From: Alphaproteobacteria bacterium
GTDB taxonomy: Bacteria; Pseudomonadota; Alphaproteobacteria; Micavibrionales; Micavibrionaceae
Length of the DNA stretch: 64,000 nucleotides
Reading direction: 5' to 3'
Assembly (NCBI GenBank): GCA_009995045.1
Contig: JAACQG010000013.1
Span: 606-64,605, forward strand
The position numbers and the translations under genes are program-made. Below, in pieces: positions 60,387 through 63,008 of the stretch. Within the stretch, counting starts at the first letter, position 1. Every line of letters starts with the position of its first letter. The notes beneath the pieces are model-generated. The model did no database searches, was not told the origin of the DNA, and saw nothing but the letters and a program-made list of their open reading frames with translations.

Positions 60387-61307
60387 TTAATCCGCGCTCG
60401 CAACAATGGTGTTGGTTGGTGCTTGATGCAACCACCATGCTTGGCGATTGATGGAGTAAATCGGGCGGTAACGCCCCGCGCGTTCGGCGTCAACCAAAGT
60501 CTTGATCTGATTATCGAGGATATATGCGCCTTCATTCGTGTAAGCCACCAAAACCGCATGTGGAATATTCTTAACCGTGTCTTGAACAATCGCAATACGA
60601 AGACGCTCTTCCGGGAAACCCAATGATTTAAGCGCCGCATATTTCGCAATCGCAAAATCTTCACAATCGCCGCCGCGTTTCAAAAACTCGACCGGTGTTG
60701 CCCAATAATCGCTCTGACCCCAGTTACGCTGATCAACAATGTAACGTGTCTGATTAACAAGCTTGTTAACGCCGCGCACCATGTCTTTCATGGATTGTCC
60801 TTTAAATGTGTTCACGTCTTTTTGAAAGTCGCGCACCACATCAAGATTGGCTTGTTGCTTAAGCTGGCGATCAAACCGCGCAAACATCCCTGTCCATTTT
60901 GTAAACGCCTTAAGGTTGCGATCTTTTTTCTCGGCAGTGCCAAGCAAATTAGGGTAAGACGCAACGCGGCCAAACTCGGCGCTTGCGCTAGCCATTTGAA
61001 CGCCTTTCATCGGCTCGGCATGCGCACGCTTGCCATGAAGGCTGGTCAATGACGCCGCAAATAACAATGCTGTCGCTGCGGTGCGCAATGCATATTGACG
61101 CCCGAGAAGCATTTTAAGTTGGAATGGAGAGATTTTAGAGGTGTCTACAAGGATTTGTCCCAAAGGACGCGCCGTTTCTTTTTGTGCATGCAGTGCGTGA
61201 CGCAATTCGTGTTGGTCGATGACACCTTTTTGAACCAAGATCTCGCCGAGCTTATTGCGCTCGATCGTCTTACGAATACTGCTTAAAAATCCTGTTTTCT
61301 TACTCAT
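60387..61307 (-). CDS. Transglutaminase-like cysteine peptidase fused to MshE-type c-di-GMP-binding repeats
   Basis: The product is 306 residues. The C-terminal half is a BTLCP/LapG-like papain-type fold: Cys215 in RGGDCEDFAIAKY, His250 in NIPHAVLV and Asp265 in YILDNQ. The N-terminal part has two 24-residue repeats of the MshE N-terminal type. They share LGxxL(I)V...L....L..Q positions (19-42: L20 G21 L24 V25 G28 I30 L35 A38 L39 Q42; 48-71: L49 G50 L53 V54 I59 L64 L68 Q71) and have a 5-residue spacer. In MshE such repeats bind c-di-GMP. A hydrophobic segment (75-90) then crosses or enters the membrane. LapG-type enzymes cut surface adhesins; the adhesin is not in the window. Confidence 0.87.
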   Translation of the reverse strand: MSKKTGFLSSIRKTIERNKLGEILVQKGVIDQHELRHALHAQKETARPLGQILVDTSKISPFQLKMLLGRQYALRTAATALLFAASLTSLHGKRAHAEPMKGVQMASASAEFGRVASYPNLLGTAEKKDRNLKAFTKWTGMFARFDRQLKQQANLDVVRDFQKDVNTFKGQSMKDMVRGVNKLVNQTRYIVDQRNWGQSDYWATPVEFLKRGGDCEDFAIAKYAALKSLGFPEERLRIAIVQDTVKNIPHAVLVAYTNEGAYILDNQIKTLVDAERAGRYRPIYSINRQAWWLHQAPTNTIVASAD

Positions 61308-61481: not shown

Positions 61482-63008
61482 ATGAGCGACCCTAAGCAGC
61501 TGAAAGAATTAGTAAATTTAATGAGTGATGTGCCTGTGCTCGTCATTGGCGATATCATGCTCGATAAATTTATTTACGGAAATGTTGAAAGAATTTCACC
61601 CGAAAGCCCTGTTCCTGTCCTATCCGTAAAGCGCGAAGACCAGATGTTGGGCGGCGCTGGTAACACGCTTGCGAACCTTGCGGGGCTAAATGCCGCGCCA
61701 CATATTATAAGCGTTATCGGCGAAGACGCCGCCGCCGACTCCCTAAAGGCGCAGCTAAAAGCGTTAAACATTGATGATGAAAACCTCGTGATCGAACAAA
61801 ACCGTCCGACAACCTTAAAGACACGCTTCCTCGCAGGGCATCAACAACTCCTGCGCAGCGACTACGAATATAAAACCCCCATCGCCGAAGCAACCAAAGC
61901 CGCTATCCTTGCCAAGGCCGCAACATTGATCCCATCGGTAAAAGCGATCATCATCTCCGATTACGGCAAGGGCATGCTATCCAAGGCGCTGATTGCGGAC
62001 GTTATGAATTTGGCCAATGATGCGGGTATACCCGTGATTGTCGATCCGAAGGGACAGGATTTTTCTATCTATAAAGGGGCAACCGCGATCACCCCCAATA
62101 AGAAAGAGCTTTCCGATGCAACAAAAGGGCGCAGCGTCGATCAGGACGCGCAAGTGGTTGCCGCTGCCAATGAATTGATCGAGACATGCGGCATTCAATC
62201 AGTCATCGCCACACGCTCAAAAGATGGCATGAGCGTCATCGAAAAAGACAAAGCACCGCTGCATCTGCGCTCTTCTGATATCGAAGTTTATGATGTATCC
62301 GGCGCAGGCGATAGCGTGATCGCAACCATCGCCGCGTCATTGGCTGCTGGCGGCTCCCTCCAAGATGCGGCAAGGCTCGCCAATATATCAGGCTCAATTG
62401 TTGTCACAAAAGTGGGCACCGCCCCGATTCGGGCGCGGGAGTTGATTGACGCCCTCGACAGCGATCTTGGTGATGTCCTGATCAAACATTACGCCAAATC
62501 AAAAACCCTCCTGCGACAGGCCGAATGTCTGGAATGGGATGAAGCCGCCGAGCGTATCAAGCGCTGGAAAGCGCAAGGGTTGAAAGTAGGCTTTACCAAT
62601 GGCTGTTTCGATGTTTTGCATTCCGGTCATGTGCGCTACCTCGATCAGGCGCGTGAATTATGTGACCGCCTCGTCCTTGGCCTCAATTGTGATTCCTCGG
62701 TAAAAATCCTAAAAGGGCCAAGCCGCCCGATCCATGATGAGCAATCCCGCGCCGATGTGTTGGGCGCATTATCTTCGGTCGACCTTGTCGTGTTATTTGG
62801 AGCAAAAGAATCAGGCGACGACAATACCGCGATTGAACTGCTTAAAACCATTAAGCCGGATTTCTATGTTAAGGGCGGAGATTACACCGTCGACCAAATC
62901 CCCGAGGCGCCAACCGTGATCGGTTATGGCGGTGAAGTCAAAATCATGTCCGTCTTCGAGGGGCATTCCACTACAAACTCCGTCAAACGTATGAACGCGG
63001 CGGAATAA
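61482..63008 (+). CDS. hldE: Bifunctional heptose kinase/adenylyltransferase
   Basis: The product is 508 residues. The N-terminal PfkB-type kinase domain has VIGDIMLDKFIYGNVERISPESPVPVL, LGGAGNTLANL, SDYGKGMLS and the DVSGAGDSVIATIAASLAAGGSL anion hole. The C-terminal nucleotidyltransferase domain has GFTNGCFDVLHSGHVRYLDQA (the HxGH motif), and DFYVKGGDYTVDQIPEAP. It phosphorylates heptose-7-phosphate at C1 and adenylates it for LPS inner-core synthesis. The length is normal for the fused form. Confidence 0.96.
   Translation: MSDPKQLKELVNLMSDVPVLVIGDIMLDKFIYGNVERISPESPVPVLSVKREDQMLGGAGNTLANLAGLNAAPHIISVIGEDAAADSLKAQLKALNIDDENLVIEQNRPTTLKTRFLAGHQQLLRSDYEYKTPIAEATKAAILAKAATLIPSVKAIIISDYGKGMLSKALIADVMNLANDAGIPVIVDPKGQDFSIYKGATAITPNKKELSDATKGRSVDQDAQVVAAANELIETCGIQSVIATRSKDGMSVIEKDKAPLHLRSSDIEVYDVSGAGDSVIATIAASLAAGGSLQDAARLANISGSIVVTKVGTAPIRARELIDALDSDLGDVLIKHYAKSKTLLRQAECLEWDEAAERIKRWKAQGLKVGFTNGCFDVLHSGHVRYLDQARELCDRLVLGLNCDSSVKILKGPSRPIHDEQSRADVLGALSSVDLVVLFGAKESGDDNTAIELLKTIKPDFYVKGGDYTVDQIPEAPTVIGYGGEVKIMSVFEGHSTTNSVKRMNAAE

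What the first reader, a model, noticed from the sequence alone, without database searches (positions are those of the whole stretch)
60387..61307. LapG-like peptidase fused to a complete MshE-type c-di-GMP-binding repeat pair
Residues 19-42 and 48-71 form two 24-residue repeats with exactly the 5-residue spacer seen in the c-di-GMP-binding N-terminal domain of MshE-type ATPases. They precede a hydrophobic segment and a transglutaminase-like cysteine peptidase with an intact Cys215-His250-Asp265 triad. In known LapD/LapG systems c-di-GMP control comes through a separate receptor. Here sensor and peptidase may be one polypeptide, which would be a one-protein adhesin-release switch. The second repeat lacks its leading Arg and its Gly is Ser (S57), so binding may be weaker or need a dimer. 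Topology is the open point: repeats in the cytosol, peptidase outside.
Basis: partly seen in the sequence, partly recalled or inferred. Interest (0 to 1): 0.78.

Follow-up and report, generated by a model that had tools for sequence, protein, structure and literature searches.

The report
c-di-GMP sensor fused to envelope protease
One gene, found in most sampled genomes of its bacterial order, joins a probable sensor for the messenger c-di-GMP to an envelope protease, with a conserved likely cut site between them that suggests sensing happens before the protease is cut loose.

Summary
The fusion is real and widespread. The ORF (306 aa, minus strand) has a complete c-di-GMP-binding motif at residues 19-71 (NCBIfam NF053729, E=1.1e-14, above cut-off), followed by a LapG-type BTLCP peptidase whose triad is invariant in 119 aligned members. 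The model superposes on c-di-GMP-bound MshE and PilF. A match spanning both halves occurs in 49 of 55 genomes sampled from the order. In a 70-sequence alignment seven motif columns are invariant, and all seven are MshE ligand contacts.

The hydrophobic segment is signal-peptide-like and is followed by a signal-peptidase-I-type AxA site: 118 of 119 members and 26 of 26 in a divergent alignment. Sensor and protease are therefore probably separated on export. The adhesin-release role is unsupported: 0 of 55 genomes reaches the cut-off for a LapA retention module, though that search had no positive control.

Best model: c-di-GMP acts on the membrane-bound precursor and controls release of the protease. 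Binding, cleavage, coupling and substrate are untested. New variant of a known kind; my searches listed no paper on this fusion.

The parts
60387..61307 (-). whole ORF, 306 aa: MshEN_N + export segment + BTLCP peptidase
   Evidence: single BTLCP match at E<=0.1 in the held genome
61318..61323 (-). candidate ribosome-binding sequence AGAGGG, 10 nt before the ATG
   Evidence: read by eye from sequence
61095..61253 (-). residues 19-71: complete 53-residue c-di-GMP-binding (MshEN_N) motif pair
61035..61091 (-). residues 73-91: hydrophobic export segment, modelled as one helix (61-91) continuous with MshEN helix 4
   Evidence: KD hydropathy 1.33 over 17 aa
61014..61025 (-). residues 95-98 (A-H-A|E): conserved signal-peptidase-I-like -3/-1 site
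   Evidence: 118 of 119 at this column; 55 of 61 in the locus alignment; 26 of 26 in alignment A2, which holds the six misses
60948..61016 (-). residues 98-120: linker after the putative cut, low confidence in its first half
   Evidence: pLDDT under 50 at 92-110
60414..60947 (-). residues 121-298: BTLCP / LapG-like peptidase domain (extent from the model)
60663..60665 (-). catalytic Cys215
   Evidence: 119 of 119
60558..60560 (-). catalytic His250
   Evidence: 119 of 119
60513..60515 (-). catalytic Asp265
   Evidence: 119 of 119
61482..63008 (+). divergent hldE gene (heptose kinase and adenylyltransferase domains), conserved neighbour
   Evidence: TIGR02198 and TIGR02199 over cut-off; same cluster in 49 of 60 fusion loci, next to the gene and divergent in 48

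Best explanation
The gene makes a membrane-inserted precursor. Its N-terminal MshEN_N domain sits in the cytosol and binds c-di-GMP. Helix 4 of that domain carries three of the ligand contacts (L64, L68, Q71) and runs straight into a signal-sequence-like helix. The C-terminal LapG-type cysteine peptidase is translocated to the periplasm. Signal peptidase I then cuts at the conserved A-x-A site and frees the peptidase, leaving a c-di-GMP-binding membrane stub. I propose that c-di-GMP acts while the two halves are still joined, and so sets how much active peptidase is released into the envelope. The direction of the effect is not known; by analogy with LapD, high c-di-GMP would hold the peptidase back. 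Shown by computation: domain identities, conserved ligand contacts, triad, hydrophobic segment and site, wide conservation in the order. Inferred: c-di-GMP binding, N-in/C-out topology, cleavage, and coupling of binding to release. Unknown: the substrate.
For: NF053729 above cut-off and in 10 of 10 homologues picked. The model superposes on c-di-GMP-bound MshE and PilF structures. All 7 invariant columns of 19-71 in a 70-sequence alignment (G21 L35 L39 G50 L64 L68 Q71) are among 12 MshE contact positions taken from Wang 2016 passages, with the offset of 10 seen; hypergeometric P 5e-6. A relaxed contact set that leaves out positions 42 and 48 is met by 118 of 119 and 61 of 61 sequences. The genome has matches to c-di-GMP enzymes: 7 GGDEF, 5 EAL. 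SPase-I-like site: 118 of 119. In A2 (26 sequences, own protein included, picked by me to include divergent ones) the -1 Ala is the only invariant residue between the last MshEN Gln and the catalytic domain; -3 is A/S/V and +1 is never Pro. The site lies in low-confidence linker in both models. Precedent for signal peptidase cutting a membrane-anchored protein on cue: RsiV and RsiP (abstracts).
Against: No binding, cleavage or activity data. If cleavage is fast and constitutive, c-di-GMP could not gate it. A conserved basic pair (93-94) just before the site is unusual, to my knowledge, for a signal-peptide c-region, though several divergent members lack it. In A2 only four motif columns (G21, L35, G50, Q71) stay invariant, and L64 drops below 90%. 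Q42 is Ser in 10, Glu in 2 and His in 2 of 61, so some members may not bind. PilF GSPII-A shows that a near-consensus domain can fail to bind. The Pro lead residue of motif II was not tested in the passages I read. A random 19-aa window of the peptidase part contains an [AVST]xA motif 24% of the time, so the motif alone is weak; its fixed place is the evidence. The fold match of the small helical domain is modest by Foldseek E-value (0.056).
Confidence: 0.4

Rival explanations
1. Uncleaved tether: sensor and peptidase stay one polypeptide. c-di-GMP acts through the single transmembrane helix (probably in a dimer) to hide or expose the active site, a LapD and LapG in one molecule.
For: Helix 4 of the c-di-GMP domain is modelled as continuous with the membrane helix in two homologues. 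The conserved basic pair after the segment could hinder cleavage. DvhG of D. [quoted passage not shown]
Against: Conserved A-x-A site, 118 of 119 and 26 of 26. The own hydrophobic segment is weak for an anchor (KD 1.33 over 17 aa, 1.22 over 19 aa; family mean 1.57 over 17 aa, range 0.58-2.28). The linker is low-confidence, so rigid coupling to the peptidase is unlikely.
Confidence: 0.2
2. Constitutively processed pair: one gene yields two independent products, a membrane-bound c-di-GMP receptor stub and a soluble periplasmic peptidase, and c-di-GMP does not control the peptidase.
For: The cleavage-site evidence above. Free-standing MshEN proteins of 101 and 112 aa with a C-terminal hydrophobic segment exist in the same order and exceed the NF053729 cut-off, so an MshEN plus membrane helix unit can stand alone. 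HvyA is a simple secreted BTLCP (passages).
Against: Both halves are found together in 49 of 55 genomes; independent products would be expected to split more often.
Confidence: 0.25
3. The MshEN-like domain no longer binds c-di-GMP and is a docking or localisation module for another inner-membrane machine.
For: PilF GSPII-A fails to bind although close to consensus (passages of PMC12002112). Motif II lead residue is Pro in 103 of 119. Q42 is not Gln in 14 of 61.
Against: In the 70-sequence alignment the ligand contacts are the invariant positions. Position-1 variation is tolerated: PilF GSPII-B has Lys and Leu and binds at 6 nM.
Confidence: 0.13

Closest known systems
LapG (P. fluorescens, L. 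pneumophila) of the LapD/LapG/LapA system
   Different: LapG is a separate protein held by the receptor LapD (passages). Here the c-di-GMP motif is on the same polypeptide, and the LapG equivalog cut-off is not reached (102 of 320 bits). No LapD_MoxY_N match in the own genome; no retention module over cut-off in 55 genomes; neither search had a control genome over the cut-off
DvhG / DvhD (Desulfovibrio vulgaris)
   Same: BTLCP with a transmembrane domain, under c-di-GMP control (passages of PMC13090378)
   Different: Control comes through DvhD; the passages I saw mention no c-di-GMP domain on DvhG
HvyA (Caulobacter), alphaproteobacterial BTLCP
   Same: Periplasmic BTLCP in a genome without LapA (passages of PMC4241560)
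   Different: Classical N-terminal signal sequence; controlled by cell-cycle expression
MshEN domain proteins (MshE, PilF, NfrB)
   Same: Same 24+5+24 motif; known to fuse to many domains
   Different: The section read lists no peptidase partner, and 'transglutaminase' occurs 0 times in the main text; its supplementary tables of architectures were not seen
RsiV / RsiP anti-sigma factors
   Same: Membrane-anchored proteins that signal peptidase cuts on cue (abstracts; their layout is partly recalled)
   Different: There the cue is outside and the output inside; here the reverse is proposed

Membership tests
MshEN c-di-GMP-binding domain | two 24-residue motifs with a 5-residue spacer | tested here: met
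   NF053729 full-length match, E=1.1e-14, above cut-off
MshEN c-di-GMP-binding domain | ligand-contact residues | tested here: met
   K19 L20 G21 L35 L39 Q42 L49 G50 L64 L68 Q71 present; only P48 departs from R/K; P is allowed in the relaxed motif
MshEN c-di-GMP-binding domain | four-helix fold | tested here: met
MshEN c-di-GMP-binding domain | binds c-di-GMP | not testable with these tools
   needs ITC or similar
BTLCP / Peptidase_C93 | profile match and Cys-His-Asp triad | tested here: met
   PF06035 80.3 bits, cut-off 27; triad 119 of 119
LapG equivalog | NCBIfam NF045674 cut-off (320 bits) | tested here: not met
   102.4 bits
LapD/LapG/LapA system | separate LapD-type receptor | tested here: inconclusive
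   PF16448: 0 matches at E<=1 in the own genome, 93.75% complete, but no control genome exceeded the cut-off. A 732-aa GGDEF-EAL protein with two hydrophobic segments (19-aa windows at 45 and 201) could be a LapD- or DvhD-like receptor. The order was not tested (cap)
LapD/LapG/LapA system | adhesin with retention module and [TAP]AAG site | tested here: inconclusive
   0 of 55 genomes over the NF033682 cut-off, 35 of 55 with weak matches, no positive control. Of 12 partial ORFs aligned, 4 hold any [TPASV]AA[GADV] tetrapeptide, none at a shared place. One adhesin lacks its N-terminus in the assembly
LapD/LapG/LapA system | LapB/LssB-type secretion system | tested here: met
   two transporters over the TIGR03375 cut-off
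LapG-type calcium dependence | acidic residues flanking the catalytic Cys | tested here: inconclusive
   D214 and E216 are 119 of 119; their calcium role is recalled, not tested
Signal-peptidase-I substrate | hydrophobic segment, small residues at -3/-1, no Pro at +1 | tested here: met
   118 of 119; 26 of 26; actual cleavage not tested, no signal-peptide predictor was available

The most novel reading that the evidence does not exclude
A second messenger controls signal-peptidase processing: c-di-GMP binding in the cytosol decides whether a periplasmic protease is cut loose from its own sensor. This would be inside-out c-di-GMP signalling by regulated release, in one protein, used as a core function by an order of largely uncultured, partly predatory bacteria.
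Probability: 0.3. Interest if true: 0.85.

Novelty: new variant of a known kind. Interest (0 to 1): 0.6.

Why it matters
In the known systems named here c-di-GMP controls envelope proteolysis through a separate multidomain receptor (LapD or DvhD). A one-gene version would be a very simple route for carrying c-di-GMP information across the inner membrane. A conserved signal-peptidase-like site between sensor and enzyme raises a sharp, testable question: can a second messenger gate signal-peptidase processing? The gene is in 49 of 55 sampled genomes of its order. Related loci include Micavibrio, whose named species is an epibiotic predator that switches between a motile attack phase and an attached phase (PMC3189940 passages), so the gene is a candidate control point for that switch; this link is inference.

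Tried and rejected
Internal start: the ORF could start at Met66, giving a plain signal peptide. Rejected: Met is at that column in only 17 of 119, and residues 1-97 show dN below dS.

LapA-type adhesin as substrate: the own-genome retention-module match (41 bits, cut-off 50) is a FecR-domain protein. It and 11 relatives (partial ORFs) share no [TAP]AAG-like site. A BapA/LapF-like adhesin C-terminus with TolC, LssB and HlyD genes lies at the start of contig C21; NF045619 there is below its cut-off (154.9 of 180). Its N-terminus was not found elsewhere in the assembly, so an adhesin target is not excluded.

Neighbour genes as clue to substrate: hldE and pyruvate kinase, S11 carboxypeptidase, FlgO, ribonucleotide reductase and others. 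Not decisive. L009 has a GGDEF-EAL gene beside hldE; six other fusion loci have shorter or longer ORFs of the same BLAST cluster, not examined.

Post-site amphipathic helix as in RsiV: hydrophobic moments of windows from residue 98 on are at most 0.46; not pursued.

The VIA listing is dominated by the peptidase; families absent from it are not excluded.

A first site test that located the hydrophobic segment automatically gave 117 of 120 and 57 of 61; the four locus misses (L019, L058, L059, L062) had the window placed in the MshEN region.

Dropped rows: P0002 (near-identical) and P0081 (fragment) from the 121-protein set. Of 85 ORF matches, three are self copies and 22 do not start at the N-terminus; of those 22, L027 looks like a fusion with a short ORF call and L081 is cut by a contig end. 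L071, L075 and L079 gave no ORF match and were not examined. Regions L098-L105 and L132 were fetched but not analysed; L135, L136 and L138 gave no frame with the searched motif.

Full report
What is there. The finding's coordinates hold a 306-aa ORF on the minus strand. Residues 19-71 match the 53-position MshE-related c-di-GMP motif of NCBIfam at E=1.1e-14, above the curated cut-off. By sequence, solved relatives of this part are PilF and MshE (5htl, residues 17-76 onto 7-66). Residues 170-278 match Peptidase_C93/BTLCP, and LapG structures are the top solved relatives.

Is the motif real and functional-looking? In a 70-sequence alignment the invariant columns of 19-71 are G21, L35, L39, G50, L64, L68 and Q71; in the larger 119-member set the same columns hold except that L39 is Met in 2 and one sequence has a gap at G21. 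With the MshE offset of 10 they correspond to G11, L25, L29, G40, L54, L58 and Q61, all named as contacts in the passages of Wang 2016 that I read (PMC5013675). If 7 invariant columns were placed at random among 53 positions, the chance that all fall on the 12 contacts is 5e-6. Gly and Leu are also structurally constrained, so this overstates the case. In the more divergent A2 alignment only G21, L35, G50 and Q71 stay invariant. The Pro at the first position of repeat 2 (103 of 119) and the Ala/Ser at the turn are within the relaxed motif of that paper. PilF GSPII-B binds at 6 nM with Lys and Leu at the two lead positions (PMC11731258 passages). Against this, PilF GSPII-A does not bind despite close similarity (PMC12002112 passages), and position 42 is Ser, Glu or His in 14 of 61 locus-set sequences. 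Only the N-terminal MshEN subdomain is present; Wang 2016 reports that this subdomain alone binds (KD 0.35 uM; section read).

Topology and the cut site. The AlphaFold model (mean pLDDT 81.8) has helices 20-26, 32-45, 49-55 and a single helix 61-91 that joins motif II to the hydrophobic segment. A low-confidence stretch (92-110) follows, then the peptidase. A second model, of the locus L058 homologue, has the same layout (mean pLDDT 84.1). The hydrophobic segment is modest (KD 1.33 over 17 aa). It ends in an [AVST]-x-A site at residues 95-98 in 118 of 119 members; the next best column reaches 84 of 119. In the 61-sequence locus alignment the column test is met by 55, and the six misses (L051, L053, L058, L059, L060, L062) all have the site when realigned in A2. 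There, in 26 sequences, the -1 Ala is the only invariant residue between the last MshEN Gln and the catalytic domain, and +1 is never Pro. Several divergent members read like textbook signal-peptide ends without the basic pair. I take this as strong sequence evidence for signal peptidase I processing, hence for separation of sensor and peptidase. It is not proof, and no signal-peptide predictor was run.

Distribution. A protein search gave 1868 homologues at E<=0.001, of which 120 were listed. In the order, 54 of 55 genomes have some match. In 49 the best match spans both halves; 17 of these 49 matches contain one or two stop codons of unexamined place, but all 49 lie in open frames of 299 aa or more, as expected if the stops are at the C-terminal end. 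The other five are a match in two frames (G049), a partial one (G006), contig pieces (G027) and two with only a short MshEN-region match in a long frame (G050, G053). G004, 62% complete, had none. The 60 loci whose ORF starts at the N-terminus are labelled Micavibrio, Alphaproteobacteria, Rhodospirillaceae or Rhodospirillales. A second BTLCP gene without the N-terminal half lies downstream within about 1 kb in L031, L034, L043, L054 and L055; most BTLCPs of other loci begin with signal-like stretches by eye. NCBI taxonomy places Micavibrio in Bdellovibrionota; I recall that GTDB places it in Alphaproteobacteria.

System context. The held genome (93.75% complete) has 7 GGDEF and 5 EAL matches and one BTLCP. 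It has no LapD_MoxY_N match at E<=1 (no control genome over the cut-off). It does have a 732-aa GGDEF-EAL protein with two hydrophobic segments, so a separate LapD- or DvhD-like receptor is not excluded. A second MshEN motif lies in a PilB-like protein at a contig end. Two LssB-type secretion ATPases are over cut-off, and one follows a BapA/LapF-like adhesin C-terminus. Retention modules: 0 of 55 genomes over the cut-off, 35 of 55 with weak matches to about the first half of the model; the own-genome one is a FecR-domain protein, and 12 aligned partial ORFs share no LapG-like site. So the substrate is open.

Mechanism. I favour regulated release: c-di-GMP is read while sensor and enzyme are joined, and signal peptidase then frees the enzyme. 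RsiV and RsiP show that signal peptidase can act on membrane-anchored proteins on cue (abstracts). An uncleaved tether and a constitutively cut pair remain serious rivals.

Literature. Searches for MshEN with c-di-GMP (30 of 56 listed), BTLCP terms (20 of 20), Micavibrio, c-di-GMP, transglutaminase (20 of 57), MshEN with transglutaminase (one unrelated hit) and LapG/LapD with 'fused' (12 of 25) listed no paper that by title or abstract start describes this fusion. I read listings, abstracts, passages and one section, no whole text and no supplements, in an open-licence library.

The LapD and adhesin rows went from 'not met' to 'inconclusive'.

Noticed in passing
A protein search with the 101-aa one gave 5 matches of 5 candidates, 88-100% identical.
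   Followed up: partly
L114:1-8842 (G000 contig C21 start): C-terminal part of a BapA/LapF-like large adhesin, cut by the contig end, followed by an uncharacterised 350-aa ORF and TolC, LssB and HlyD genes.
   Followed up: partly
L117:11371-14016 (+): 881-aa FecR-domain protein with a weak retention-module match; such weak matches occur in 35 of 55 order genomes. Possibly a type I secreted surface protein.
   Followed up: partly
L115:18545-19759 (-): 404-aa protein with a CRP-like N-terminus and an EAL domain, near a second LssB-type secretion operon.
   Followed up: no
L086:649-2847 (-): 732-aa GGDEF-EAL protein with two strong hydrophobic segments, a layout like LapD or DvhD.
   Followed up: partly
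L031, L034, L043, L054, L055 downstream of the fusion gene: A second BTLCP gene without MshEN domain within about 1 kb downstream; these five loci also carry Ser at the Q42 ligand contact of the fusion protein.
   Followed up: no
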